A DNA stretch of 64,000 nt. Source: a virus. Made by a program: the position numbers and the translations under genes. The notes under the pieces are model-generated. The model had not been told where the DNA came from, did not search any database, and worked only from the letters and a program-made list of their open reading frames with translations. Where the stretch lies: IMG/VR virus record IMGVR_UViG_3300041405_000148, positions 1 to 64,000 of that record; one strand, given 5' to 3'. This document shows, in pieces, positions 25,064 to 44,698 of the stretch; the first letter of the stretch is position 1, and every line of letters begins with the position of its first letter.

Positions 25064-26155
25064 TTATTTCTTAGCCCAGCTTGCAGCGATATCAGAAACT
25101 TTACTGATAGCATCCCTAGCTCCAGTCTTAACCTCTACGCCTTTTTCTTCGGCAAATTCGGCTTTAACTTTTTCAATTTCACTGAAAGCTTTATTTAGAG
25201 CTTCTACAAAGATAAAAGAATCTTCTGGAGACTTAATCAGTGCCTTAACAAGCTCACCAACTTTTTCATCTTCAATGAAACCAAAACCTTTTACAAGGTC
25301 AGTGTAAGTTTTTTCAACACGCTCTGCTTCTGCTTTTTCTACAGCAACCAAGCGGGTCTGTGCATCAGTTAAAGACTTTTTAAGATCTTCTTTTTCTTGT
25401 TTTTCAGCTTGAACAGCTTCATCAACCAGACTCTTTAGGAGTTCCTTGGCTTCTTCGCTTTTCAGAATTTCTTTAATATCCAATTGAGGTTCCTCATTTG
25501 TTTTTATGATTACTTCAGAGGGATCATTCTCCTCTGATTTAATGTCCTCTGATTTAATCACAGAGTGTTTTTCTATCTGTAGTTTTTGTTTCGCAATCAG
25601 CTCAGATACTTTAGTTTTAACATCCTCACGAGATTCAGATTTAACTAAAAGAGCCAAGACTTCTGCTTCAACAGTGTCACGTACAGAATCAGAAACTAAA
25701 ACTTCACCATCTATTTCAACATAGCTGGATAAAGAGATAACAGGAGTAGCCACATCATTTAACGTAACAGTTGTTCCATTTATTGAGTAACTTACTGAAT
25801 ATAATCCTTCATCAGTTAAAAATATTGCGATAGTGTCGTCATAATCTACAAGCCAGGTAATTTCCCACCAGTCAACATAATTCTTGTCGCTGATAGCATC
25901 TTGAAGAAGACGATAAGTGTCATTTGCAAAAAGAGCTTTTTCTAATTTTTCGGTGTTGACACCAATCTCTTTTAGCTTTAAAATCATCTCATCGTTAACT
26001 TCTAAATTATCTGATTTGAATAAAAGTGGTTTGTTGTAACCAGAAGCAGCACCACCTTGAAAGTCAAAGGTAAGAGCAATATGTGCTCCAAGTGTGTCTT
26101 CTGATTCTTCGAAGTCAAATGTAACGTCTTCGAGGTATGCGGATGGTTTTGCCAT
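25064..26155 (-). CDS. Head scaffold protein
   Basis: A 363-residue protein. The N-terminal third is beta-rich (1-160). The rest is a highly charged helical region with Lys/Glu repeats (KSEDIKSEENDPSEV, LKSEEAKELLKSLVDEAVQAEKQEKEDLKKSL) typical of capsid scaffolds. It overlaps the protease gene by one base, the usual protease-scaffold coupling. It probably fills and is removed from the prohead. Confidence 0.65.
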   Translation of the reverse strand: MAKPSAYLEDVTFDFEESEDTLGAHIALTFDFQGGAASGYNKPLLFKSDNLEVNDEMILKLKEIGVNTEKLEKALFANDTYRLLQDAISDKNYVDWWEITWLVDYDDTIAIFLTDEGLYSVSYSINGTTVTLNDVATPVISLSSYVEIDGEVLVSDSVRDTVEAEVLALLVKSESREDVKTKVSELIAKQKLQIEKHSVIKSEDIKSEENDPSEVIIKTNEEPQLDIKEILKSEEAKELLKSLVDEAVQAEKQEKEDLKKSLTDAQTRLVAVEKAEAERVEKTYTDLVKGFGFIEDEKVGELVKALIKSPEDSFIFVEALNKAFSEIEKVKAEFAEEKGVEVKTGARDAISKVSDIAASWAKK

Positions 26156-26622
26156 TAATCCTCCAAAGGTACTCGTCTACCACGAGCGCCAATAGAAATT
26201 CCTTTAAAGATACCATCTTTCCTTTTTTGCCAGAGTTCAGGATCATGGAATTTCAGTTTAACGAGTGGCAACCCTTCAGGAACAAGCTCATCTCCGATCA
26301 TACAATCGCACTCATTAACCCAAGCTCTAGTTGGTGAGAATTGATCGGTGTTTACAGCGTGTCCGAAGTTACCTTTAATTTTATGGATGTTGGTATTGAA
26401 GTTATCTACCATTTTACGAATCTCAGCTTCTGTCATAGCCTCTCCGTGAGCATCAGCTTCTAACGGAGCACAATAAAGGACTTCGATACTTTCCATCTTT
26501 TCATCTTCAAATTTCTTTACAACAGGAACTGAAAGATCTTGTGGAGGAATATCGAAATCTTCATCAGGAGCAGATTCGACAAATTTTTTAAATAACTCAA
26601 CTATGGTTGACTTGTTTAACAA
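26155..26622 (-). CDS. XkdF-like prohead protease
   Basis: About 156 residues. VLYCAPLEADAHGEAMTEAEIRKMVDNF, then FGHAVNTDQFSPTRAWVNEC, then GLPLVKLKFHDPELWQKRKDGIFKGISIGA matches the XkdF-type serine protease of phage proheads. The GHAV histidine and the final SIGA serine are candidate catalytic residues. I prefer the TTG at 26622, six bases after GGAG. Confidence 0.7.
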   Translation of the reverse strand: MLNKSTIVELFKKFVESAPDEDFDIPPQDLSVPVVKKFEDEKMESIEVLYCAPLEADAHGEAMTEAEIRKMVDNFNTNIHKIKGNFGHAVNTDQFSPTRAWVNECDCMIGDELVPEGLPLVKLKFHDPELWQKRKDGIFKGISIGARGRRVPLED

Positions 26623-26660
26623 AGTTTTCTCCAAAATAATTAAGTTATTTCCTAATACTC

Positions 26661-26689
26661 ATTGTATAGGAAGTTTTTAAGAAAGTCAA
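26661..26689 (-). promoter_or_regulatory. Strong sigma70-like promoter for head genes
   Basis: On the minus strand TTGACT (26689-26684), a 17-base spacer and TACAAT (26666-26661). The -10 is followed by GAGTATTAGG, which also follows the portal promoter. Confidence 0.75.
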
Positions 26690-26720
26690 CATATTTATCA
26701 AAAAATATTAAATATATTTA

Positions 26721-28301
26721 TTAAGATGCATTTTCTGTGTTAAGAGAAGATGTGTCGTCTACAGCTACAGCAGTTGAAGTTCCGTTCCCGTTTGTCCCTT
26801 GTGCCATACCATCTCCAGAACGACTTGTAGAGTTAGGAACAAACTTAGCCATGAAATCTGCCAGTTTATTTTCATCTAAAAGTATTTCATCAGGGATTTG
26901 ATATTTAATCCCACACATGGACATAAACTCATTCATAACTTCTGGTGTCAGTGGTACAGCACCTACAGCAATAATACGCTGGATCATTTTTGAGTTTGCT
27001 TCTATGTCTGGATCACCTACTTCACCAGGTACGAATACAGGCATATCTTCATCAGAAAGATACATACCGTTGAGTGCTAATAACTGTGGAATAAAATCTT
27101 TATTCAGGACATCAGTACAACCCTTAACATCATGCTCTACGAACTGAGAATGCAAGTTTTGTTTGTTATCACTAAGGTTATAAGAACCACCATCACCAGA
27201 ACCCATAATAAGTACATAAGCACCGAAGCCATCATAAATATCTTTCTTACGTTCATTCTTTAAAGTCTGTGTGTCAAATTGCTTACCAGAACCTTCAATA
27301 CCTAAGAACTTTATTGAGTACTGTTTTATACCATTACCTTGTTCTTGAACATCAGAAGGTATGATCATAAAACTTTGTTCGCCAGCATGGAGGTTTGCCA
27401 TTTGGCTTTTCAGCACTTCAATACTATATGCTTCATCACTGTTAGGATCTTCAGCTGCCTTATTCATGATTTCTGCTGGTACTTCTAATACAGGCATACC
27501 ACCCATATCTTTTGCCACACCAACGACTTCATACTCAGCAATAAGAGTTTTCTCTTTCCAAGGTCTGTACAGACTTGCCAGAGGTGATTTACCCATTGGA
27601 TTTGTATCAGTGATTTGTTCACCAAAAAGTAAGAATTTATTCCTTGGAATATAAATCTCACCAACTAATGGTACAGTATTTCCATCAGTGAATGAAGTTG
27701 CATTTGGAATATTCTGATAAACACCAAGAACTTCTCTTCCATCTTCTGAGTACTTAAATGGACGACTCTTTCTCAATGTTGTCTGGGGTCTTGCTGCAAG
27801 TTTTTTGACTTTGTATTTACCTACATATTCACCACTAAGAACTTTGGTATAAACTTTCTCAAGAACAGAAAAGCCATGAACTTTATAAGTTAGTGCCTCT
27901 CTTATTGCTTGTTTTAAAGTTTGACCATCCATGTTCTTCAAACACCACTTTACAAACTTAGCGGCATCCTCTGACTGTTTGCTCTCTTTATTAAAAGTAA
28001 CTTCGAAATCATCAAAAGCTCTCTCAACAAAAAGTCCATTAGCGCGAAGTGCTGTAGCGACATCCTGATCTAAGGCCATTTCTTCAAATGTATCTATACA
28101 ACGAGGCCATGCAATTTCATAATCCTTGATGAAACTTGTGTAGATGTTTATTGTGCTTAAAGCTGTAGTACCAATCTCCCCTAATTTTAGACGAGATGTT
28201 ACTTGATCTGTGTTGCCAGCTTTGCTAACATCTCCTGACTGAGATTTCTTAGAGAGATTGTCCCAATAAGGAGATTTCTTGGTGTAGTTTCTTTTTGCCA
28301 A
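26721..28301 (-). CDS. Portal protein (DUF935, Mu gp29-like)
   Basis: A 526-residue protein. It contains EEMALDQDVATALRANGLFVERAFDDFEV, KQAIREALTYKVHGFSVLEKVY, SPLASLYRPWKEKTLIAEYEVVGVAKDMGGMPVLEVPAE and a phenylalanine/glutamine-rich central stretch. This is the DUF935 portal family used by Mu and relatives. The C terminus is Asn/Ser-rich. It forms the DNA entry ring. Confidence 0.85.
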   Translation of the reverse strand: MAKRNYTKKSPYWDNLSKKSQSGDVSKAGNTDQVTSRLKLGEIGTTALSTINIYTSFIKDYEIAWPRCIDTFEEMALDQDVATALRANGLFVERAFDDFEVTFNKESKQSEDAAKFVKWCLKNMDGQTLKQAIREALTYKVHGFSVLEKVYTKVLSGEYVGKYKVKKLAARPQTTLRKSRPFKYSEDGREVLGVYQNIPNATSFTDGNTVPLVGEIYIPRNKFLLFGEQITDTNPMGKSPLASLYRPWKEKTLIAEYEVVGVAKDMGGMPVLEVPAEIMNKAAEDPNSDEAYSIEVLKSQMANLHAGEQSFMIIPSDVQEQGNGIKQYSIKFLGIEGSGKQFDTQTLKNERKKDIYDGFGAYVLIMGSGDGGSYNLSDNKQNLHSQFVEHDVKGCTDVLNKDFIPQLLALNGMYLSDEDMPVFVPGEVGDPDIEANSKMIQRIIAVGAVPLTPEVMNEFMSMCGIKYQIPDEILLDENKLADFMAKFVPNSTSRSGDGMAQGTNGNGTSTAVAVDDTSSLNTENAS

Positions 28302-30061: not shown

Positions 30062-30136
30062 TTTGCAGGTCTCACTCTTATACCGGGCTTAAATTGCATA
30101 CCATCCCGATAGAGTCCCTGTATGCTGCACTGCAAA
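30062..30136 (-). ncRNA. Structured RNA candidate 1 (pseudoknot)
   Basis: A 75-base intergenic segment between the last tRNA-like gene and the terminator. The ends pair over 7 bp (30130-30136 with 30062-30068). An inner hairpin pairs 30120-30125 with 30096-30101. Its loop (30105-30115) can pair with downstream bases 30074-30087 over 11 bp with two small bulges, forming a pseudoknot. No ORF is seen. The paired ends and complementarity are read directly; the existence of the RNA is inferred. Confidence 0.5.
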
Positions 30137-30141
30137 TTGTG

Positions 30142-30822: not shown

Positions 30823-30937
30823 AAAATGTTTATGTCCGGCACTCTCTACAGGTGGTCAATCCCGTCTATAGGGCATCCACATCTATTGTGGTTGACCTAG
30901 CCCCTAAGATGAAAGAAAGCACCAGCATAAACACTTT
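30823..30937 (-). ncRNA. Structured RNA candidate 2 (long terminal stem, pseudoknot)
   Basis: A 115-base segment between tRNA-Ser and tRNA-Cys whose two ends pair over 24 bp with one bulged base. Outer 12 bp: 30926-30937 with 30823-30834. Bulge: 30835. Next 12 bp: 30914-30925 with 30836-30847. Several pairs are G-U only when read as minus-strand RNA, which sets the strand. Inside, 30892-30897 pairs with 30854-30859 and stacks on hairpin 30877-30881/30887-30891. Bases 30900-30906 can pair into that domain at 30869-30874. No ORF is seen. It resembles, in layout only, Y-type or other stable phage RNAs. Confidence 0.65.
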
Positions 30938-31021: not shown

Positions 31022-31110
31022 TGAATTAGTGTCCGTATCGTGGACTAACGTTTCACTTCGCAGGTGAAATTCTTCTTCTAGCAGAAGATGGTATGACTAG
31101 TCAGGATTGT
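31022..31110 (-). ncRNA. Hairpin-rich intergenic RNA segment
   Basis: Four short hairpins in a row: 31023-31048 (TTAG..CTAA with TCC..GGA), 31051-31069 (TTTCAC / GTGAAA, loop CTGCGAA), 31074-31087 (CTTCT / AGAAG) and palindrome TGACTAGTCA at 31094-31103. No ORF and no closing stem was found. It may be a processing spacer or another stable RNA. Confidence 0.35.
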
Positions 31111-31114
31111 TTGG

Positions 31115-31241
31115 TTTAGAGTCCTTAGTTCCTCAAACCTCTACTGAGGATGAAAGTACATGTACCAGTCATCCCGTTCGTTTTCTGCGGCCTCTGCCTT
31201 TCGACACTCCACTGAGTAGGACCTTTCCTAAGAACTCTAAA
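31115..31241 (-). ncRNA. Structured RNA candidate 3 (14-bp terminal stem)
   Basis: A 127-base segment between two tRNA genes. Its ends pair over 14 bp (31228-31241 with 31115-31128), one of them a G-U pair as minus-strand RNA. Inside are hairpins 31131-31135/31145-31149 and 31148-31153/31169-31174, the latter enclosing the palindrome GTACATGTAC. No ORF. Same layout as candidate 2: tRNA-sized gap, closed ends, minus strand. Confidence 0.6.
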
Positions 31242-31243
31242 TT

Positions 31244-31325
31244 TGGCGCTCATCCGAGGATTCGAACCTCGATACCTTCTGGTGGCCTACCAGCGTAGCA
31301 CTTACCATCTCAACCTTTCATAGCC
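31244..31325 (-). pseudogene. tRNA-like gene, damaged 5' half
   Basis: The 3' half is canonical: T arm CGAGG TTCGAAT CCTCG, 3' strand GATGAGC, discriminator G, encoded CCA. The 5' half has no strand that pairs with GATGAGC, and the arm CTGGT AGGCC ACCAG gives no standard anticodon loop with T33. Identity undetermined. Confidence 0.5.
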
Positions 31326-31371
31326 TTGGGTTGCAACCCTATCTATCCTCAGTTGGTGCATGAGCATTGTT

Positions 31372-37020: not shown

Positions 37021-37096
37021 TGGAAGCGGATACCGAAATCGAATCGGTCTGGAGAGGCTTATGAGACCCCTGAACTCACCAGAGTTCTAATCCGCA
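37021..37096 (-). tRNA. tRNA-Met (CAT)
   Basis: Pairs 2-7 GCGGAT / ATCCGC, position 1-72 unpaired (T-T), anticodon loop CTCATAA, D arm GAAC / GTTC, T loop TTCGATT, encoded CCA. The unpaired 1-72 recalls initiator tRNA, but no three G-C pairs are seen in the anticodon stem. Confidence 0.8.
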
Positions 37097-37097
37097 A

Positions 37098-37283
37098 TTA
37101 TTCTATTTCTTTAAAATAAGGTTGATCTAAAATACCATACCTCTTTTCAACTTTTTTAAGTCTTACATCACAAACTAAACCATCAGAATTAAAGCAATAC
37201 TGAATCTTAGAGAAAGTTAAATTGCCATCCGAATCAAAGCCTGTTTGGACTTTCTTGCCAGAATCAACCCAGTTTTCTTTCAT
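37098..37283 (-). CDS. Hypothetical 61-residue protein
   Basis: Small protein MKENWVDSGKKVQTGFDSDG followed by LTFSKIQYCFNSDGLVCDVRLKKVEKRYG. Repeated 'F.SDG' turns suggest a beta hairpin fold. The ATG at 37283 has AGAGG; a longer reading would run through the adjacent tRNA. No family recognised. Confidence 0.6.
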   Translation of the reverse strand: MKENWVDSGKKVQTGFDSDGNLTFSKIQYCFNSDGLVCDVRLKKVEKRYGILDQPYFKEIE

Positions 37284-37299
37284 AAAACCTCTTTTAAGT

Positions 37300-37384
37300 T
37301 GGTACATCAGGTGAGACTCGAACTCACACAGGTTGCCCCGCCAGAACCTAAATCTGGTGCGTCTACCAATTTCGCCACTGATGC
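37300..37384 (-). tRNA. tRNA-Leu (TAG)
   Basis: Acceptor GCATCAG / CTGATGT, anticodon loop TTTAGGT on CCAGA / TCTGG, long variable arm, T loop TTCGAGT and encoded CCA. Confidence 0.9.
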
Positions 37385-37394
37385 ATTTGTTTAG

Positions 37395-37454
37395 TTTGCT
37401 CTGATACGCTACACGTAAATCCTGCAAGCCCGAAGGTCTCTACAGGAGAGCAAA
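37395..37454 (-). ncRNA. Structured RNA candidate 4 (closed 60-base fold)
   Basis: Ends pair over 8 perfect bp (37447-37454 with 37395-37402). A second hairpin, 37441-37446 with 37421-37426, stacks directly on it and is capped by CC TTCG GG. An 18-base single-stranded side remains on the 3' side, like candidate 1. No ORF. Confidence 0.5.
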
Positions 37455-37459
37455 TTAGG

Positions 37460-37551
37460 CGTCGCTCTAGGGAATTGAACCCCAGTCAGGATGCGCAGTC
37501 CTGTCCACCAAGGATAGTGAGGAATCGAACCTCAGTCATACCAGACACGAC
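37460..37551 (-). tRNA. tRNA-Arg (GCG) with an extra hairpin in the D region
   Basis: Acceptor GTCGTGT pairs with GAGCGAC (one mismatch), anticodon loop CTGCGCA on CAGGA / TCCTG, T loop TTCAATT, 3' end GCC-T rather than CCA. Between acceptor and anticodon arm lie about 41 bases instead of 19. They include TGAGG TTCGATT CCTCA, a complete T-arm-like hairpin. Either a D-region insertion or a fusion of two damaged tRNA genes. Confidence 0.5.
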
Positions 37552-37557
37552 ATAATT

Positions 37558-37633
37558 TGGTGGAGACGAAGAGAATTGAACTCTTTACAGGAAAGGTGCA
37601 AACCTTCCTCGCTACCTTAGTACATGCGCCCCC
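37558..37633 (-). tRNA. tRNA-Ala (TGC)
   Basis: Acceptor GGGGGCG / CGTCTCC pairs fully with two G-U pairs. Anticodon loop TTTGCAC, T arm AAGAG TTCAATT CTCTT, encoded CCA. The D stem is weak. Confidence 0.7.
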
Positions 37634-37664
37634 AAATTTTTGCGCCCCTTTGTAGTGAATGTCT

Positions 37665-37762
37665 TTAAGTGGAGTCTTTAATGCAAGCAATAAATTTCCT
37701 CACACACTTAATCTTAGACCTACTCAGCTGGACGGCTTTAGGAAAGCGTCCTTTCCCTTCTC
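37665..37762 (-). ncRNA. Hairpin-rich intergenic segment
   Basis: Between tRNA-Ala and tRNA-Phe. Contains stem 37705-37711 / 37665-37671 (TTAAGTG / CACTTAA) and a 9-bp hairpin with one bulge at 37731-37752 (GGAC-GCTTT / AAAGC-GTCC). No closing stem and no convincing ORF. Confidence 0.35.
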
Positions 37763-37765
37763 ATT

Positions 37766-37841
37766 TGGTGGAACCTCTCAGAATCGAACTGAGTCCTCAT
37801 CGTCTTCAGCGACACGCGCGAACCATCTACGCCAAAGTTCC
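37766..37841 (-). tRNA. tRNA-Phe (GAA)
   Basis: Acceptor GGAACTT / AGGTTCC, anticodon loop CTGAAGA, T loop TTCGATT, encoded CCA. Confidence 0.9.
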
Positions 37842-37896
37842 ATATTCACTGTCGATTGGTTAACTGAATCTCCAACTCCCCACAATGAATTTTAAT

Positions 37897-37974
37897 TGGT
37901 CTCCCCTCCTGGATTCGAACCAGGGACCCGATGCATCCAAAGCACCTACGCTGACCAGACTGCGCTAAGGAGAG
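37897..37974 (-). tRNA. tRNA-Pro (TGG)
   Basis: Acceptor CTCTCCT / AGGGGAG, anticodon loop TTTGGAT, T loop TTCGAAT, encoded CCA. Confidence 0.9.
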
Positions 37975-38038
37975 ATAGTTTTACTTTTTGATAATCCAGA
38001 AGTATCGGAAAAACTGGAACCAGCTGGCAAGCTGAGTT

Positions 38039-38114
38039 TGGCAGGTCTGCCTTGACTTGAACAAGGGCTACGAATTTCAAAGACTCGTGTGCTAACCAAT
38101 TACACCACAGACCT
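38039..38114 (-). tRNA. tRNA-Gln (TTG)
   Basis: Perfect acceptor AGGTCTG / CAGACCT, anticodon loop CTTTGAA, G discriminator, encoded CCA. It is followed by a small hairpin CAGCT TGCC AGCTG and a run of T (38005-38034), a possible processing or weak termination site. Confidence 0.9.
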
Positions 38115-38122
38115 ATTAAATT

Positions 38123-38196
38123 TGGAGCATCCTACGAGACTCGAACTCGTGACATCGACTTGGAAGGACGAGATGTTACCACTACACCAAGAATGC
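38123..38196 (-). tRNA. tRNA-Gly (TCC)
   Basis: Acceptor GCATTCT / AGGATGC, anticodon loop CTTCCAA, T discriminator, encoded CCA; one mismatch in the anticodon stem. Confidence 0.85.
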
Positions 38197-38203
38197 TTTA
38201 ATC

Positions 38204-38279
38204 TGGTTGTCTCAACAGGGAACGATCCTGTGACCTCACCCTTATCAGGGGTGCGCTCTACCAACTGAGCTATGAGACA
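38204..38279 (-). tRNA. tRNA-Ile (GAT)
   Basis: Acceptor TGTCTCA / TGAGACA, D arm GCTCAGTTGGTAGAGC, anticodon loop CTGATAA, encoded CCA. The T loop is ATCGTTC. Confidence 0.9.
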
Positions 38280-38288
38280 ATTATTCTT

Positions 38289-38495
38289 TTAACGATTGAT
38301 CTGATGTCCGATAACGCCACCAACAGCAGCACCACCTAAAGTCCCAAGACCTGAACCGTTTGTTAAAACTGAACCACCTATTGCACCTACACCTGCACCA
38401 ATTGCTGTGTTACGATCACGTTGTGACATATTAGAACAACCTGAAACAGAAGCGGCTAAAACAACAGCCAGTAGGATAGCAGAAACTTTTTTCAT
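38289..38495 (-). CDS. osmB: OsmB-like lipoprotein
   Basis: A 68-residue protein. Signal peptide with lipobox VSGC (Cys at 20), then SQRDRNTAIGAGVGAIGGSV, GSGLGTLGGAAVGGVIGHQ. This is almost the E. coli OsmB sequence, an osmotically inducible lipoprotein with a glycine-zipper membrane segment. The ATG at 38495 has GAGGT upstream; a longer reading would enter the tRNA-Thr gene. It sits alone among tRNA genes and is probably host-derived. Function in infection is unknown. Confidence 0.8.
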   Translation of the reverse strand: MKKVSAILLAVVLAASVSGCSNMSQRDRNTAIGAGVGAIGGSVLTNGSGLGTLGGAAVGGVIGHQINR

Positions 38496-38525
38496 TTTTA
38501 CTACCTCATTTGTTTTAATGAAACT

Positions 38526-38600
38526 TGGTGCTCCCACACTGAATCGAACAGAGATTAACGGGTTACAAAGCCGCAGTAATAGCCATTATACGATAGGAGC
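38526..38600 (-). tRNA. tRNA-Thr (TGT)
   Basis: Acceptor GCTCCTA / TGGGAGC, anticodon loop TTTGTAA, T loop TTCGATT, encoded CCA; one mismatch in each of the anticodon and T stems. Confidence 0.8.
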
Positions 38601-38606
38601 ATAAAT

Positions 38607-38689
38607 TGGCTGGGGAGGTGGGATTCGAACCCACGTTGTCTTTCGACATGGATTAACAGTCCACCGCTAAACCACTCAGCTACACCCCA
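38607..38689 (-). tRNA. tRNA with Asn anticodon (GTT) and serine-type long variable arm
   Basis: 83 bases. Acceptor pairs six of seven (GGGGTG strand against CTCCCC). 3-bp D stem GCT / AGC, anticodon loop CTGTTAA on GTGGA / TCCAT. The variable region is 13 bases with GTC GAAA GAC, T arm GTGGG TTCGAAT CCCAC, G discriminator and encoded CCA. Ordinary tRNA-Asn has a 5-base variable loop. A long variable arm is the main identity element for seryl-tRNA synthetase, which does not read the anticodon. Confidence 0.8.
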
Positions 38690-38705
38690 ATAATTCTTAT
38701 TCAAC

Positions 38706-38868
38706 TAATCATTCCACGAGGCTCCTCTCATCCTCGTCATTCTATCCGGTGCACTCGGCTTAGGAGTCCGTTACTTGGGAATCTACATGGTAGGAGCCGA
38801 TCCTCCCTCGAATTACCTCACAGTTGTATGCCTACATCTGCTTTCGATCCTTGCTAACAAAATGATTA
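38706..38868 (-). ncRNA. Structured RNA candidate 5 (closed 163-base fold)
   Basis: Ends pair over 8 perfect bp (38861-38868 with 38706-38713, TAATCATT / AATGATTA). Inside, TCGGCT / AGCCGA pairs 38795-38800 with 38755-38760 and ACGAGG / CCTCGT pairs 38732-38737 with 38716-38721. It fills the gap between tRNA-Asn-like and tRNA-Lys genes. No ORF. Confidence 0.5.
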
Positions 38869-38881
38869 TGTAAATAAAAAC

Positions 38882-38956
38882 TGGTTGATCGGGTGAGGTT
38901 CGAACTCACGTCTCGATGCTTAAAAGGCACCTGCCTAACCACTTGGCTACCGATCA
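38882..38956 (-). tRNA. tRNA-Lys (TTT)
   Basis: Perfect acceptor TGATCGG / CCGATCA, anticodon loop CTTTTAA, T loop TTCGAAC, encoded CCA. Confidence 0.9.
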
Positions 38957-38965
38957 ATTAAAACA

Positions 38966-39084
38966 TTAAAAACTGACTGAAGTAAAAGGGGATTAAGGAT
39001 TGCCCCTCTTTCCTTGCCCGAAGGCTGTTTCACCAATTGAAGTTTGTATTTTGGTTGCTGAACTACTTCATTGTCAGTTCTTAA
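38966..39084 (-). ncRNA. Structured RNA candidate 6 (18-bp terminal stem, pseudoknot, UUCAGCAA motif)
   Basis: Ends pair as AACTGAC + TGAAGT against ACTTCA + GTCAGTT (13 bp with a two-base bulge; 39065-39079 with 38971-38983), and five more weaker pairs extend outward. Inside are GCC TTCG GGC, an 8-bp hairpin with GGGG / CCCC, and AAGGA / TCCTT that can pair into that hairpin's loop as a pseudoknot. A hairpin at 39039-39069 carries TTCAGCAA, shared with candidate 7. The 3' strand runs into TTTTT. It nearly abuts tRNA-Asp. Confidence 0.6.
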
Positions 39085-39087
39085 ATT

Positions 39088-39164
39088 TGGCGAGGATGAC
39101 GAGATTCGAACTCGCATTTTCCGCATAGACAGTGCGGTACAATTACCCAGTCTGCCACATCCCC
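39088..39164 (-). tRNA. tRNA-Asp (GTC)
   Basis: Acceptor GGGGATG / CATCCTC, anticodon loop CTGTCTA on CCGCA / TGCGG, G discriminator, encoded CCA. Confidence 0.9.
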
Positions 39165-39221
39165 ATGTATTTAATCTAACATAAATACCTACATCAAATC
39201 AAGATATTTATCTTATTATTT

Positions 39222-39312
39222 TGGCGGAAGCGGAGAGAGTCGAACTCTCAAGGCGCTGTTAACGCTCGGCTGTTTTCAAGACAGTTTTCGTCGCCAATCG
39301 ATTTGCACTTCC
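39222..39312 (-). tRNA. tRNA-Ser (TGA)
   Basis: Class II. Acceptor GGAAGTG / CGCTTCC, anticodon loop CTTGAAA, long variable arm (GAGCGTTAACAGCGC), G discriminator, encoded CCA. Confidence 0.9.
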
Positions 39313-39320
39313 ATTTTGTT

Positions 39321-39398
39321 TGGTATCCCCACCGAGACTCGAACTCGGCCCTCCAGATTGAAAGTCTGGCGATCTAACCAACTAATGCATATGGCGAT
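39321..39398 (-). tRNA. tRNA-Glu (TTC)
   Basis: Anticodon loop CTTTCAA on CCAGA / TCTGG, T arm CCGAG TTCGAGT CTCGG, encoded CCA. The acceptor has one G-G mismatch (ATCGCCA against TGGGGAT) and the D stem is weak. Confidence 0.75.
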
Positions 39399-39404
39399 GT
39401 TGTT

Positions 39405-39486
39405 TGGTGGGGCCACCTGGATTCGAACCAGGGCGTGGTATGCTAGATTTACAGTCTAGTGCGTTCGGCCTCTCTGCCATGTCCCC
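39405..39486 (-). tRNA. tRNA-Tyr (GTA)
   Basis: Acceptor GGGGACA / TGGCCCC (one mismatch), anticodon loop CTGTAAA, class II variable region, T loop TTCGAAT, encoded CCA. Confidence 0.85.
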
Positions 39487-39665: not shown

Positions 39666-39761
39666 AACATTTCTCCTGTGTCAATGGGTTTTATTAAGAT
39701 ACTTCAGTATATTCAGAAGGTCTGTTTTTAGTGTTTTATCCAGTTAAACTATCAAGTCAAA

Positions 39762-39840
39762 GACCTGAGCCGGATTCGAACCGACAACGCTCCTTTAGCA
39801 GAGGAATTTTAGTGTTGCTGAAAAACCTTCTTGAATTTGG
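39762..39840 (-). ncRNA. tRNA-like 3' half with upstream UUCAGCAA hairpin (candidate 8)
   Basis: Reading leftward: a hairpin carrying TTCAGCAA (39803-39830), then an anticodon-like arm TTCCT CTGCTAA AGGAG, a T-like arm GTCGG TTCGAAT CCGGC and 3' strand TCAGGTC. No 5' acceptor strand (GACCTGA) exists nearby, there is no CCA, and the serine-type anticodon GCT comes without a long variable arm. It may be a dead tRNA or a tRNA-mimicking module of an RNA that follows the Ro60-like gene. Confidence 0.45.
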
Positions 39841-39912
39841 TATGGCAGAAGAATTTTGGTTTACATTTCAATTGTAAGTAATTGCGGTATTTCTTCTTAC
39901 CTAATCTTAAAA

Positions 39913-40004
39913 CTTATTTTTGAAAATCACAGAAGAACCCTTGGTTTCTTTAAGCTAGAAGTTTGTGATTGCTGAATGTCTTCATCATGATCTTCAAGAA
40001 TAAG
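39913..40004 (-). ncRNA. Structured RNA candidate 7 (17-bp terminal stem)
   Basis: A 92-base segment directly downstream of the Ro60-like gene on the same strand. CTTATTCTTGAAGATCA (40004-39988) pairs with TGATTTTCAAAAATAAG (39929-39913) with one C-A mismatch and one G-U. Inside is a hairpin GAAG..CTTC (39958-39983) carrying TTCAGCAA, shared with candidates 6 and 8. No ORF in 39667-40111 was found. Confidence 0.6.
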
Positions 40005-40063
40005 TCTTTGTTTATTAACTTATGTACTTGATTTAAGTCCAAAGTTATTTACTTATGTACTTA

Positions 40064-40092
40064 CTTTAACATAAGGGCTAACTCCATGTCAA
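40064..40092 (-). promoter_or_regulatory. Possible promoter for ncRNA/tRNA transcription
   Basis: On the minus strand TTGACA (40092-40087), 17 bases, TTAAAG (40069-40064). The -35 is perfect and the -10 poor. The repeated word TTATGTTA also occurs near the terminase promoter and at 39180. Confidence 0.4.
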
Positions 40093-40111: not shown

Positions 40112-41572
40112 TTAGAAATCGTAACGAGGTACGTTAACTAATGTTTTTACCACATTAACAGGATTCAGGTCTCCTGTCAACACCCCTTTCATCACTGAAG
40201 GAGAAAAACCTGACACAAGAGCTACACCTTGGTCGTTGACCTGCACAGGAGAGTTCCCTAATTGCTTAGAGTGAACGTTCCAGAACACAATCTGAGGCAT
40301 CTGATAACCCGCTACTTCATACTTCTGGCGAATCGCTTCAAAGTTAGTCACTTGAGGTGTCCGGTTATACCAGCTACCATAACCTCCTGTTGCTTGGTTG
40401 AACTCCATGTCAGAGACAATCAGGATTTTCGTAGGCATCTCATTTTCAGAAATACGATTACTGATTGCCAGGTCCAGAATCACATCGAAGGTCTTCTGAA
40501 GGTCAGTGCTGCCACCCCAAGAAGCCTGACGAACATAATTAACCTTCTGACCGATAGTCATTGAATCACTGACTTCAATGAAGTGCGGGTTGTCTTCAAA
40601 GGTGATCATCTTGTTACGGAAGACACCAGTATTTCGCTCCGCAATATACAATCCGAGAGAGATTGCGACATCCATTGCTGAAGTCTCACCTGCTACGCGG
40701 CTTTCCATTGAACTTGACACGTCAACTACCGAAATCAAACGTTCGCTTGTCCCTTCCATATAATCAGGAAGAGCTTTCCATTGTGCGTTCGATACAGTCT
40801 GATCACCGTACTTAACTGATTTAACGATATCATATGGATAAACTGCACCAGCATTAACTTTAGCAGAGCCATCGTCTTTAATCAATGCTTCTTTGTAAGC
40901 AGTATAACGATCACTGTCTACACGATTAAATAAACGCTGATAACGTGAAGCAGCCAGAGAAGGAAGCTTGCTGTAATCAATCTCTGAGTAATCTTTTCGT
41001 GACAGCTTCTGTTCCACTGTATCAGAAAGAGTAGAAAGCATCTTATTGTACTCTTGGTAACTCAGTTTCATTGCTTTAGTTAATGTCTTGGCATAAACCT
41101 TATTTGCAGATGTTGCATTTCCACGCATACGTGGCATCCACTTTGCAACTAATGCTGCACGAGATTTATCAGTCAATGCTTGAATGATAAAATCAATTGC
41201 CTCTGCCTGAACAGGTGTTCCGATAGCAGCCAGGATATCATCCCAACGACCAAGTTCTGGGATCTTGACAAGCAGACGCTTAGCCAACTCTGGATTTTGC
41301 ATTGCAATATTACGAAAAGTTTTACGGAAAATATTTCGCTCACCCATTCCACCGCGAACATCTCGTGAGTATAAAAGGATACGAACAGCTGTCTCTGCAT
41401 CCTCATCATAAGCTTTCCAAAACATATCTTCTGAAATAACAGAAGGATTGCTACGCAAAGAACCGATCTTAAAGAAAAGATCTACGTTAGCATTTAGTGA
41501 AGATTGATGAGTAACGGCACCGTTCAGCGTGACTTGAGTCTTAGTTTTGCTTGCATCAAACAGTTTGGACAT
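40112..41572 (-). CDS. Ro60-like TROVE/vWA RNA-binding protein (DUF2828-like)
   Basis: A 486-residue protein. The N-terminal TROVE-like helical repeats include AVRILLYSRDVRGGMGERNIFRKTF and LVKIPELGRWDDILAAIG, then AALVAKWMPRMRG. The C-terminal von Willebrand A domain has a MIDAS motif DVSSSMES (near residue 285) and a second metal-site region GGSTDLQKTFD. In animals and Deinococcus, Ro60/Rsr forms a ring that binds Y RNAs and misfolded or structured RNAs and works with RNases. Here it stands with its own promoter beside the tRNA and structured RNA block. It is the natural candidate partner of those RNAs (inference). Confidence 0.85.
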   Translation of the reverse strand: MSKLFDASKTKTQVTLNGAVTHQSSLNANVDLFFKIGSLRSNPSVISEDMFWKAYDEDAETAVRILLYSRDVRGGMGERNIFRKTFRNIAMQNPELAKRLLVKIPELGRWDDILAAIGTPVQAEAIDFIIQALTDKSRAALVAKWMPRMRGNATSANKVYAKTLTKAMKLSYQEYNKMLSTLSDTVEQKLSRKDYSEIDYSKLPSLAASRYQRLFNRVDSDRYTAYKEALIKDDGSAKVNAGAVYPYDIVKSVKYGDQTVSNAQWKALPDYMEGTSERLISVVDVSSSMESRVAGETSAMDVAISLGLYIAERNTGVFRNKMITFEDNPHFIEVSDSMTIGQKVNYVRQASWGGSTDLQKTFDVILDLAISNRISENEMPTKILIVSDMEFNQATGGYGSWYNRTPQVTNFEAIRQKYEVAGYQMPQIVFWNVHSKQLGNSPVQVNDQGVALVSGFSPSVMKGVLTGDLNPVNVVKTLVNVPRYDF

Positions 41573-42079: not shown

Positions 42080-43780
42080 TTAAAGATATTTTTTAATCTC
42101 TTGTGAGACATTCTCACGGATCTCAACCAGACTCTGTTTACGAACAAGCTGACCATCTTTGAAAACAATCGCAAGTTCATTCTCCGGTGCAGAAATATCT
42201 TCGAATGACAAACCATCTACCAGAAGATAATCTCCCTCAGAGTCTTTAACTACATTTAGGAAACCTTTAGCTGATTTCTTTTTAACATCCGTTTTAGGTT
42301 CTTTGCTTACCAAGATCTCTTCACCATCAATGATAGAGCCTGTTGCTTTACAAGCAAAACCGAATGTGTCACGGGTACTGTAGTTGTAAGTATAACTACC
42401 GATACCGAATACAATGTTGCTTGATGCAAAGCCTTTTGCTTCCAGGCGTTCAAAGATCTCAGTTGCGCGTTTCAAGGTGATTGAATCACCATAGATAACA
42501 CCTACATGTGTGTCCAGAACTTTGTAACCTTTGGAGTTAACTTCACCACCAAAGATTCCCCAAAGCACTTCAACAGAACCTTTTGCTTCATGTTCAGGGA
42601 TTTCATAATCATAATCTGAATCTTCTGGTTCAGGGCAAGCAATAAACTTACCTTCATCTTGAATGAAGAAAGCTTCCCAAGATGAAATTGCATCAACATC
42701 CCAAGTGTTAAGTTCTTCTCTGGAACTTACTTCAACATAATTGTAACCTGCAACAACTTTAACTGGATCACCAGAGTCAGGACGGAATACCAGACGACCT
42801 TCACGAGCCATGATCTCCTCTTTCAGTGCAGGCGCAATCTCAGTCAGAACACTCCAGTAATCATAGCTGTCAGCAACATAAGATGCAAATCCATTTGGAT
42901 AAATCTGAGTAATGTAACTTTTTAAAAATGATTCTTCAGCCATGTGACGTTTAACATCAATTGACCATTCAGTTTTTGCTCCTGGAATCGTAGCTTCAGC
43001 TTTAGCAATAATAGCGCCAATATTGGTTGTTGCAACAGAATGCTCAGAAGCTGGGATTGAACCTGCCACAAAAGTTTCTTCACCATCGTAAAAATCTTCA
43101 GCGTACTGGATTGCCAGAACAGTATCAGTACCTTTGAAGCTCAGGATGTGACCGAAGCTTGAGCCATAACCGTCATAAATGCCAGATAGACCACGGAATG
43201 CAAAGTCATGACCCTGGAAGTCAACATGTAGATTGTTGTCACAGGTTTTCTCAGCGTAACGTTCAAACAACAGACGGTAGTTAAAAGCTGTAGTTGCGTT
43301 AGTGATGACTTTCCAAGTTTCTGCTGAAAGTGCAGACTCAAAATAATTTGTCAGCCATGCAAAGCGATCATCTGTGTTGTGAACAGTGTAAATTGGAACT
43401 TGAATTGGACACAGTGTACCTTCTGGAAGACAACGGATTTCCAAAGGCAGATATCCCAGATCGTGAAGTTCTTCAATATGTGTAACATCCAGGTCTACGT
43501 TCAGAGATTTATCTACCAAACGTTTGTACTGAGAAACAACTTTGTCTTTGGCTTGGTTAAAGAAACCTTCGTTCCACATATCCATAATAAATGATTGAAC
43601 AACACCTTGTACACCTGCTACCAGGACCGCATGCGGGGCATCAGGAACATAATGTTGAAAAAGTTTATCAGCCCGTGGAGTAAAGTTACTGAAAATCAAA
43701 GTTGTCAGTGGGTTATACTGGTTAATATGCCCGATCTTGTAAAAGTCCGTTGAAAACAGTGGGTTAGGTTTACGGCTCAT
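42080..43780 (-). CDS. NAMPT-like transferase (NadV / Namat)
   Basis: About 566 residues. It begins MSRKPNPLFSTDFYKIGHINQYNP and has the phosphoribosyltransferase-type core with DFQGHDFAFRG, ATTNIGA, YVADSYDYWSVL, LVFRPDSGDPVKV, LDTHVGVIYGDSITL and SSNIVFGIGSYTYNYSTRDTFGFACKAT. This is the nicotinamide phosphoribosyltransferase family. Next to a PRPP-synthetase-like gene, it matches the NARP1 pair reported in phages, in which this enzyme (Namat) joins nicotinamide to ADP-ribose pyrophosphate to remake NAD+. A plain NMN-forming NadV is the alternative. Confidence 0.85.
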   Translation of the reverse strand: MSRKPNPLFSTDFYKIGHINQYNPLTTLIFSNFTPRADKLFQHYVPDAPHAVLVAGVQGVVQSFIMDMWNEGFFNQAKDKVVSQYKRLVDKSLNVDLDVTHIEELHDLGYLPLEIRCLPEGTLCPIQVPIYTVHNTDDRFAWLTNYFESALSAETWKVITNATTAFNYRLLFERYAEKTCDNNLHVDFQGHDFAFRGLSGIYDGYGSSFGHILSFKGTDTVLAIQYAEDFYDGEETFVAGSIPASEHSVATTNIGAIIAKAEATIPGAKTEWSIDVKRHMAEESFLKSYITQIYPNGFASYVADSYDYWSVLTEIAPALKEEIMAREGRLVFRPDSGDPVKVVAGYNYVEVSSREELNTWDVDAISSWEAFFIQDEGKFIACPEPEDSDYDYEIPEHEAKGSVEVLWGIFGGEVNSKGYKVLDTHVGVIYGDSITLKRATEIFERLEAKGFASSNIVFGIGSYTYNYSTRDTFGFACKATGSIIDGEEILVSKEPKTDVKKKSAKGFLNVVKDSEGDYLLVDGLSFEDISAPENELAIVFKDGQLVRKQSLVEIRENVSQEIKKYL

Positions 43781-43831
43781 CATTAAACTCCTTATATAAA
43801 GTGGTCTTTGACCCCTTAAACAGTTTTAAAA

Positions 43832-44698
43832 TTAATTGGAAGAAGGTACGTCTTTCAGGATACTTTTTGTATTACGACCTTCAACATTGAAAGACCATGT
43901 GTTTCGGCTGTAAACATTATCGATCACACCATCAAAGATGTCAACACCTTTACTGAAAATTCCGTGTGTGATGTAAAGATCTACCTGAACTGCACCTTTC
44001 TCACGAAGTGCTTTAGCCAATGGGATGAACGTACCCCCAGCGTCGATCAGATCATCTACAATAAGAACTTTGCGACCATTAACATCATCATACACTTTAG
44101 TCTCAATGATTTTTCCATCTTTTGTATCACGAATTTTATCTGCTTTGATAATATCAACACCACCCAATGCCTGAGAAAGTTTCAGAACTTTCTTCTGAGA
44201 CCCTGCGTCAGGTGAGACCAGAGCAATATTTTCACTCTTAATATGGTCACCAAGCAGAGCAACAACAATCTCATGCTGAGACCGAGATGCAACATTATCA
44301 ATAAGCGCCGGGGAAACATCTGAGTGAGGGTCTTCCACCAAGACACGATTGAATCCAGCGGTGTTCAGAAGTGTTGCATAAACAGCTGCTGATAAAGCTT
44401 CACCTTCTTCACAAGCTCTGTCCTGACGAGCTGCTGGAATGTAAGGCATTTCCAGCAGCAGGCTACTTGAACCCGGAAGGAAAGCAGGTAGACGTTTAAT
44501 CGCGTCAGCTAAGAGTAAAGTCGTAAGAAAACTCTCTGCTGAAGTAATGTATGCATAAATGTTAGCAGATGAGATAAGCTCATCAATCTCAGAAACATTT
44601 TTGATCTTCACATGACACTCGCCACCTGAAAATGTGAACATATCCAGTTCAAGGGTGATCTCTTTACCTGTAGCTGTTATAATCACTGACTTAATCAT
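43832..44698 (-). CDS. PRPP-synthetase-like enzyme (Prs / Adps)
   Basis: A 288-residue protein. It contains EMPYIPAARQDRACEEGEALSA (flag/ATP region), VLVEDPHSD, ALVSPDAGSQKKV and the PRPP-binding loop VLIVDDLIDAGGTF. It belongs to the ribose-phosphate pyrophosphokinase family. In NARP1 the homologous enzyme (Adps) pyrophosphorylates ADP-ribose instead of ribose-5-phosphate. It lies eight bases after the PcfJ-like gene and 50 bases before the NAMPT-like gene in one operon. Confidence 0.85.
   Translation of the reverse strand: MIKSVIITATGKEITLELDMFTFSGGECHVKIKNVSEIDELISSANIYAYITSAESFLTTLLLADAIKRLPAFLPGSSSLLLEMPYIPAARQDRACEEGEALSAAVYATLLNTAGFNRVLVEDPHSDVSPALIDNVASRSQHEIVVALLGDHIKSENIALVSPDAGSQKKVLKLSQALGGVDIIKADKIRDTKDGKIIETKVYDDVNGRKVLIVDDLIDAGGTFIPLAKALREKGAVQVDLYITHGIFSKGVDIFDGVIDNVYSRNTWSFNVEGRNTKSILKDVPSSN

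What the first reader, a model, noticed from the sequence alone, without database searches (positions are those of the whole stretch)
40112..41572. Ro60-like TROVE/vWA protein beside the structured RNA block: a possible phage Ro-RNP system
The protein has TROVE-like repeats and a MIDAS motif (DVSSS). Ro60/Rsr proteins bind Y RNAs, whose ends form a long stem with a bulge and whose bacterial forms include a tRNA-like module. Directly downstream on the same strand lie candidate 7 (long terminal stem) and a tRNA-like 3' half, then the rest of the RNA family. The combination suggests the RNAs are ligands or guides of this protein.
Basis: partly seen in the sequence, partly recalled or inferred. 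Interest (0 to 1): 0.85.

Follow-up and report, generated by a model that had tools for sequence, protein, structure and literature searches.

The report
Phage Ro60-like protein with Y RNAs
This virus of bacteria carries a gene for a ring-shaped RNA-binding protein related to the human Ro60 autoantigen, and right beside it small RNAs built like the known Ro60 partner RNAs, one of which holds a rearranged copy of the transfer-RNA shape; the pairing recurs, with a shared signature, in many unrelated phages and bacteria.

Summary
The protein is real. ORF 40112-41572 (-), 486 aa, is a DUF2828/DUF7788 (phrog_850) protein with an invariant MIDAS, present in 681 phage records. Its AF2 model aligns end to end with Ro60 bound to RNA (Z 19.9, 406 residues). 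It fails the Pfam TROVE model, so it is a divergent Ro60-type clade. The adjacent ligand is also real: 281 nt downstream on the same strand lies a YrlA-type Y RNA (39715-39831), a circularly permuted tRNA inside a closing stem. Found in phages, the motif recurs in bacterial relatives of the gene used as held-out data: 136 elements in 58 of 76 loci, 2 on the opposite strand, mean 7 for permuted hexamers. Rfam lists none. 'The rest of the RNA family' is not supported as ligands: the block is mainly tRNA genes, and the RNA at 38695-38872 occurs in phages that lack the gene. Phage Ro/Y RNA systems were already reported, so this is a new variant. Binding and function are untested; I favour RNA surveillance, with nuclease decoy as main rival.

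The parts
40112..41572 (-). Ro60-type (DUF2828/DUF7788, phrog_850) protein, 486 aa
   Evidence: fold match to Ro60 Z 19.9 over 406 aa
40709..40723 (-). codons of the MIDAS DxSxS motif (DVSSS, residues 284-288) in the vWA domain
   Evidence: D284, S286, S288 invariant in 31 relatives
40063..40092 (-). promoter-like TTGACA-18-TAAAGT between the gene and the RNA cluster
   Evidence: pattern scan, 10 of 12 positions (9 sites found against 6.0 expected, so weak alone); -10-like region partly kept in KP13-16 and phi1
39932..39983 (-). tentative short Y-like RNA 1 (GAAGA ... CAGCAA ... TCTTC)
   Evidence: CAGCAA at 39974; similar CAGCAA element in relatives; does not fold better than shuffles
39847..39897 (-). 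tentative short Y-like RNA 2 (AGAAGAA, AU, ACCGCAA ... TTCTTCT), motif variant
   Evidence: homologous elements with ACAGCAA in KP13-16 and phi1; fold not better than shuffles
39715..39831 (-). YrlA-type Y RNA: closing stem AGAAGGTTT/AGACCTTCT, CAGCAA, permuted tRNA module
   Evidence: conserved in 5 Klebsiella phage records, all gene-positive
39815..39820 (-). CAGCAA signature next to the closing stem
39769..39785 (-). T-arm of the permuted tRNA module
   Evidence: GTCGG-TTCGAAT-CCGGC
39752..39768 (-). acceptor-stem hairpin closed by UUU
   Evidence: TCAGGTC-TTT-GACTTGA
39733..39749 (-). D-arm of the permuted tRNA module
   Evidence: GTTT-AACTGGATA-AAAC
38971..39079 (-). Y-like RNA without tRNA module: AACTGACaaTGAAGTA/TACTTCAGTCAGTT closing stem, then GTT-CAGCAA
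   Evidence: fold z -3.9; homolog in Klebsiella phage phi1 L053 7981-8099 keeps CTTCAATTGGTGAAA with a different closing stem
37021..39486 (-). tRNA gene array downstream (not part of the RNP)
   Evidence: ARAGORN and Rfam
38695..38872 (-). unrelated conserved structured RNA in the array (not linked to the gene)
   Evidence: 28 phage records; 3 of 3 records checked lack phrog_850

Best explanation
The locus encodes a phage Ro ribonucleoprotein. A divergent Ro60-type protein (helical-repeat ring plus vWA domain with MIDAS) is encoded next to two, probably four, Y-like RNAs. I infer that the protein holds each RNA by its closing stem and the ACAGCAA motif beside it. One RNA carries a circularly permuted tRNA domain (T-arm, acceptor hairpin, UA, D-arm) that projects as an effector module recognised by tRNA-binding factors. 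By analogy with Deinococcus Rsr-Y RNA-PNPase, the particle most likely tethers a host exoribonuclease or tRNA enzyme to the ring and gates its hole, so that misfolded or damaged structured RNAs, including products of the phage's own large tRNA array, are degraded or checked during infection. Shown: fold, RNA anatomy, genomic linkage, conservation. Inferred: binding, tethering, surveillance. The confidence below is for the Ro-Y RNA partnership; the surveillance/tether role is about 0.45 given that partnership.
For: Fold: Z 19.9 to Ro60-RNA 1yvp over 406 aa, Z 16-18 to Thermus phage Ro60 9l5y/9kop, Z 13.8 to Rsr 2nvo, the best vWA-only match at Z 11. YrlA match directly downstream. Of 26 permuted-tRNA cores that overlap no tRNA gene, 21 carry CAGC[AG][AC] 15-44 nt upstream, against 0 of 12 chance cores made by tRNA genes. 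Closing stems pair true flanks far better than swapped ones: mean 22.0 vs 13.1, 0 of 20000 permutations, N=20. Held-out bacterial relatives: 136 elements in 58 of 76 loci on the gene strand, 2 on the opposite strand, mean 7.0 for permuted hexamers. Covariance model above the control maximum (over 40 bits) in 7 of 13 gene-positive records not used in training and 0 of 8 gene-negative ones. blastn relatives of 39700-40010 occur only in 5 records, all carrying the gene.
Against: No binding or expression data for this phage. Six of 21 gene-positive records lack a YrlA-type RNA above the control level, and two of them (LAh_9, CF9) showed no recognised Y-like RNA. The protein fails the Pfam TROVE model. 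Gene-RNA adjacency could reflect a shared hotspot next to tRNA arrays. Two of the four RNAs in the window do not fold better than shuffles. The surveillance or tethering step rests on analogy only.
Confidence: 0.8

Rival explanations
1. Decoy or counter-defence: the tRNA-like Y RNA, held by the Ro protein, acts as a tRNA mimic that titrates or inhibits host anticodon nucleases or other tRNA-targeting defences, protecting the phage and host tRNAs.
For: Permuted tRNA module without a free acceptor end; location in a large phage tRNA array and beside NAD-salvage genes (NAMPT, PRPP synthetase); PMC7790460 proposes competitive inhibition of an anticodon nuclease for Salmonella YrlA, whose fragments were not detected there when tRNAs were cleaved; tRNA cores of canonical order inside bacterial Y-like RNAs.
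Against: Most Y-like elements have no tRNA module (median 88 nt, minimum 58), as in Listeria phages, so tRNA mimicry is not the common denominator. No direct data.
Confidence: 0.25
2. RNA-repair platform: the Ro-Y RNP scaffolds phage RNA ligases or kinases that mend cleaved tRNAs, as in rsr-yrlBA-rtcBA operons.
For: 14 of 20 gene-positive records encode a PF09414 or PF09511 RNA-ligase hit; Listeria LP-048 has RtcB-like and RNA ligase genes within 5 kb; PMC7824862 makes this proposal for jumbo phages.
Against: The window's own record has no match to either ligase family; several gene-positive phages lack both.
Confidence: 0.15
3. The protein is a stray Ro-fold protein with another job (for example a virion-packaged protein), and the neighbouring RNAs are independent elements of the tRNA block.
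For: The Listeria homolog CKA15_055 was found in purified particles (PMC12282133); at least one structured RNA in the block is unlinked to the gene.
Against: The stem + CAGCAA RNAs track the gene across phages and bacteria, on its strand and within about 1 kb, and occur in mycobacteriophages with no tRNA array next to the gene.
Confidence: 0.07
4. The tRNA-like RNA is only a decayed tRNA or a chance composite of tandem tRNA genes.
For: Such composites do occur and match the RNA model weakly, up to 36.4 bits in gene-negative phages.
Against: The window element has a 3-nt acceptor loop and no CCA, overlaps no tRNA call, carries a closing stem and CAGCAA, and has covarying relatives.
Confidence: 0.02

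Closest known systems
Bacterial Rsr-Y RNA RNPs (Deinococcus Rsr/Y RNA/PNPase; Salmonella rsr-yrlBA-rtcBA)
   Same: Ro60-fold protein with Y RNAs encoded beside it, one with a tRNA-like module of YrlA order; closing stem joins the RNA ends.
   Different: Protein is of the DUF2828/DUF7788 clade and fails Pfam TROVE; RNAs carry ACAGCAA beside the closing stem, a motif absent from the Rfam YrlA consensus; no rtcBA; PNPase link untested.
Phage Ro systems: mycobacteriophage Ro-like proteins with Y RNAs (Chen 2014, known to me only as cited in PMC12282133), Thermus phage phiLo Ro60 (PDB 9l5y/9kop), Listeria phage CKA15_055
   Same: Phage-encoded Ro-fold protein; in LeBron, Rumpelstiltskin and Listeria phages Y-like RNAs lie next to the gene.
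   Different: Here the motif and closing-stem rule are defined across phage groups and bacteria, and tRNA-less members are added, including three tandem RNAs in Listeria phages.
Rfam RF02553 YrlA
   Same: T-arm, acceptor hairpin, D-arm order; model positions 28-81 align.
   Different: 31.4 bits against a cut-off of 69; closing region differs; none of the 20 gene-positive phage records checked reaches the cut-off.
T4 species 1 and 2 RNAs (rnaC, rnaD)
   Same: Stable structured RNAs inside a phage tRNA cluster.
   Different: T4 has no Ro gene; rnaC ends in an ordinary-order T-arm; CAGCAA closing-stem architecture not seen.

Membership tests
Ro60/TROVE-vWA proteins | Match to Pfam TROVE (PF05731) | tested here: not met
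   window protein and 30 relatives hit DUF2828/DUF7788, none hits PF05731
Ro60/TROVE-vWA proteins | Helical-repeat ring followed by vWA, whole-length fold match to Ro60 | tested here: met
   AF2 pLDDT 80.8; 1yvp_A Z 19.9, 406 aa, rmsd 4.0; 2nvo Z 13.8
Ro60/TROVE-vWA proteins | vWA MIDAS residues | tested here: met
   D284, S286, S288, T356, D388 invariant
Ro60/TROVE-vWA proteins | Binds Y RNA and misfolded RNA | not testable with these tools
   needs biochemistry
DUF2828/phrog_850 phage proteins | Profile match | tested here: met
   phrog_850 2.1e-153; 681 phage records
Bacterial Y RNA, YrlA type | Permuted tRNA module (T-arm, acceptor hairpin, D-arm) | tested here: met
   covariation in 16 relatives (the search selected for pairing)
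Bacterial Y RNA, YrlA type | Rfam YrlA gathering score (69 bits) | tested here: not met
   31.4 bits
Bacterial Y RNA, YrlA type | 5' and 3' ends form a closing stem | tested here: met
   AGAAGGTTT/AGACCTTCT; flank-swap test 0 of 20000
Bacterial Y RNA, YrlA type | Encoded next to a Ro gene | tested here: met
   281 nt downstream, same strand
Phage/bacterial stem + ACAGCAA Y-like RNAs (defined here) | CAGCAA 0-3 nt after the 5' strand of the closing stem, near a DUF2828 gene, gene strand | tested here: met
Phage/bacterial stem + ACAGCAA Y-like RNAs (defined here) | Motif restricted to DUF2828-type loci, absent from canonical TROVE loci | tested here: inconclusive
   4 elements in 7 canonical TROVE regions of Bacillota, 2 of them plausible
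Rsr-Y RNA-PNPase machine | Y RNA tethers Ro to PNPase | not testable with these tools
   no interaction data
Ordinary tRNA gene | ARAGORN or Rfam tRNA call over 39715-39831 | tested here: not met
   no call there

The most novel reading that the evidence does not exclude
DUF2828-type Ro proteins of phages and bacteria form a separate Ro clade with its own class of Y RNAs, defined by a closing stem (consensus AARRYRC / GYRYYUU-G) and ACAGCAA, often in tandem arrays, with interchangeable inner modules: none, a permuted tRNA, or a tRNA of canonical order with a CAU anticodon. ACAGCAA would be the clade's Ro-binding determinant.
Probability: 0.6. Interest if true: 0.72.

Novelty: new variant of a known kind. 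Interest (0 to 1): 0.6.

Why it matters
Ro60 is a major human autoantigen whose basic function is still debated. Phages with small genomes offer a tractable system. A simple sequence rule (closing stem + ACAGCAA beside a DUF2828 gene) makes the RNA partners predictable in about 680 phage records and in many bacteria, proposes identities for unannotated RNAs beside CKA15_055 in Listeria phage CKA15 (PMC12282133 raised Y RNAs as one explanation for its abundant transcripts), and turns the question of what Ro-Y RNPs do into a phage-genetics experiment. The two topologies of the tRNA mimic, permuted and canonical, would also test whether tRNA mimicry or something else is the shared function.

Tried and rejected
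(1) Chance composite of tandem tRNAs: rejected for the window, but such composites set the noise level of the RNA model (up to 36.4 bits). (2) Rfam YrlA alone as a detector: too weak, also rings in tRNA-rich control genomes. (3) The other structured RNAs as Ro ligands: 38695-38872 occurs in phages without the gene; 31100-31245 has no blastn relatives in the phage collection; neither has CAGCAA. (4) One long RNA at 39848-39990: folds no better than shuffles (z +0.7); two short RNAs fit the relatives better but stay tentative. (5) Identifying the Listeria CKA15 region 26,236-26,727 with the Y RNAs: rejected; by alignment it maps to a ~500-nt RNA upstream of them. (6) Known defence system: no PADLOC or NCBIfam hit. 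(7) Sequence search of the PDB with the single protein: no hit; the profile gives only E 0.012 to phage TROVE structures. (8) CAGCAA as exclusive to DUF2828 loci: inconclusive. (9) The main papers on bacterial Y RNAs (Chen 2014; Sim and Wolin 2018; Sim 2020) are not in the library, so whether the ACAGCAA rule is already published could not be checked.

Full report
Observation. ORF 40112-41572 on the minus strand encodes 486 aa. Pfam gives DUF7788 (4.9e-52) and DUF2828 (7.7e-24); the Ro60 vWA model is below cut-off and TROVE PF05731 is not matched, for this protein or for 30 relatives. PHROGs gives phrog_850, 'RNA-binding protein' (2.1e-153). The MIDAS residues D284, S286, S288, T356 and D388 are invariant in 31 sequences. 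tblastn finds the protein in 681 phage records, from Escherichia and Salmonella (Felix O1 type) to Mycobacterium, Listeria, Campylobacter, Vibrio, Enterococcus and Staphylococcus phages. The window belongs to a 153,309-base virus record; its nearest relatives by this protein are Klebsiella phages of 137-150 kb, some classed as Stephanstirmvirinae.

Fold. An AlphaFold2 model from the window protein and 30 relatives (mean pLDDT 80.8) matches only Ro proteins over its whole length: Ro60 with RNA (1yvp, Z 19.9, 406 residues), Thermus phage phiLo Ro60 (9kop and 9l5y, Z 17.6 and 16.4), and D. radiodurans Rsr (2nvo, Z 13.8); the best vWA-only match is Z 11. So the protein is a Ro60-type protein by fold, though it is not in the TROVE Pfam family.

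The RNA next door. Rfam's YrlA model matches 39733-39788 (-), 31.4 bits, E 6e-5 in a 531-base scan, below its 69-bit cut-off. Read on the minus strand, the element is closing stem AGAAGGTTT, TT, CAGCAA, about 29 nt, T-arm (GTCGG TTCGAAT CCGGC), acceptor hairpin (TCAGGTC TTT GACTTGA), TA, D-arm (GTTT AACTGGATA AAAC), 9 nt, closing stem AGACCTTCT. This is a tRNA cut open after the D-arm and joined at the acceptor end. Its fold is better than shuffles (z -2.7).

A recurrent signature. I scanned the loci around gene relatives with a structural descriptor that asks only for the three arms. Of 26 hits that overlap no tRNA gene, 21 carry CAGC[AG][AC] 15-44 nt upstream; of 12 hits produced by ordinary tRNA genes, none does. 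Neither the motif nor the closing stem was part of the descriptor. In 20 motif-bearing elements the flank before CAGCAA pairs with the flank after the D-arm far better than with flanks of other elements (mean score 22.0 against 13.1; 0 of 20000 permutations). On 16 aligned cores, 12 of 15 pairs change on both sides (covariation 0.887 against 0.238 shuffled and at most 0.172 slid); because the descriptor selected for pairing, this last figure supports the model but is not an independent proof.

Elements without a tRNA module. The same closing stem + CAGCAA occurs as short RNAs beside the gene: 30 elements (some of them with the tRNA module) in 22 of 54 phage and viral loci, against a mean of 4.3 for permuted hexamers. 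In Listeria phage LP-048 three lie in tandem directly 5' of the gene (5663-5720, 5755-5809, 5822-5927), with a TTGACA box upstream. In Campylobacter phage NCTC12673 a 78-nt element lies just 5' of the gene.

Held-out test in bacteria. The motif came from phages. In 76 bacterial loci encoding relatives of the protein the same search gives 136 elements in 58 loci on the gene strand, 2 on the opposite strand, and a mean of 7.0 for permuted hexamers; the only comparable permutation is ACAGCA, which overlaps the motif itself. These loci are related to each other, so counts are not independent events. Over 203 elements the consensus is AARRYRC-NNA-CAGCAA ... GYRYYUU-G, median 88 nt. Rfam has no family over them at gathering score other than tRNA cores in a few; L138 3454-3546 and L191 3507-3603 enclose a tRNA of ordinary order with a UUCAUAC anticodon loop.

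Co-occurrence. With model R1, 15 of 21 gene-positive records score above 40 bits, 7 of them among 13 not used in training; 8 gene-negative phages with tRNAs score at most 36.4. blastn with 39700-40010 finds five records, all among the six whose copy of the gene is 60-80% identical; in KP13-16 at least five CAGCAA sites follow the gene within about 600 nt.

Other RNAs in the window. 38971-39079 has a 14-bp closing stem with a 2-nt bulge directly before GTT-CAGCAA, folds with z -3.9, and has a relative in Klebsiella phage phi1 (L053 7981-8099) that keeps CTTCAATTGGTGAAA but has another closing stem. 39932-39983 and 39847-39897 correspond to short CAGCAA elements of KP13-16 and phi1 but do not fold better than shuffles, so they are tentative. 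A promoter-like sequence lies at 40092-40063. The remaining block is tRNA genes and other RNAs. 38695-38872 is shared with Schitoviridae and Ackermannviridae phages; the three checked have no phrog_850.

What is known. Y RNAs near Ro genes have been reported in bacteria and mycobacteriophages (Chen 2014, as cited in PMC12282133). PMC12282133 suggested Y RNAs near the Listeria phage CKA15 homolog without identifying them, and found that protein in purified particles. Its most transcribed region (26,236-26,727) is not the CAGCAA cluster: by my alignment the cluster lies in the gap at about 25,215-25,611. LeBron's homolog is toxic when overexpressed (PMC13148394). PMC7824862 proposed RNA repair for TROVE proteins of jumbo phages. 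A phage Ro60 structure is in the PDB. The primary papers on bacterial Y RNAs could not be read.

Mechanism. Shown: a Ro-fold protein; adjacent RNAs with a shared closing stem and motif; conservation of that pairing. Inferred: the protein binds the stem and ACAGCAA; the tRNA-like module recruits tRNA-binding factors or a nuclease; the particle checks or degrades structured RNA. I put the Ro-Y RNA partnership at about 0.8, and the surveillance/tether role at about 0.45 given that partnership. The decoy rival explains the tRNA module but not the many module-free RNAs. RNA ligases co-occur in 14 of 20 gene-positive records but not in the window's own record, so an obligate repair role is unlikely here.

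Noticed in passing
window 38695-38872 (-): About 160-nt conserved structured RNA in the tRNA array, shared with Schitoviridae and Ackermannviridae phages that lack the Ro gene; no Rfam family matches it.
   Followed up: partly
window about 31250-31370 (-): tRNA-like RNA with a long insertion between the acceptor strand and the T-arm (TGCTCAT ... GGTTCGAATCC ... ATGAGCGCCA); T4 species 1 RNA (rnaC) also ends in a T-arm after a long structured part.
   Followed up: no
window 31110-31220, 30835-30925, 30070-30140 (-): Further RNAs with long terminal stems between tRNA genes, without CAGCAA; the first has no blastn relative in the phage collection.
   Followed up: partly
window 39226-39312 and 37558-37633 (-): Two tRNA-like genes missed by ARAGORN: one of tRNA-Ser/Sec type and one that reads as tRNA-Ala (UGC loop).
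   Followed up: no
L059 about 4420-5060 (Listeria phage LP-048): A roughly 500-nt structured non-coding RNA behind a strong promoter corresponds to CKA15 26,236-26,727, which by PMC12282133 yields most phage reads; unidentified and without CAGCAA.
   Followed up: partly
L138 3454-3546, L191 3507-3603, L157 3353-3457: Bacterial Y-like RNAs that enclose a tRNA core of canonical order (CAU-type anticodon loop in the first two), unlike the permuted module of YrlA.
   Followed up: partly
window 42080-44698 (-): Nicotinamide phosphoribosyltransferase and PRPP synthetase genes upstream of the Ro gene: a phage NAD-salvage pair beside the RNP locus.
   Followed up: no
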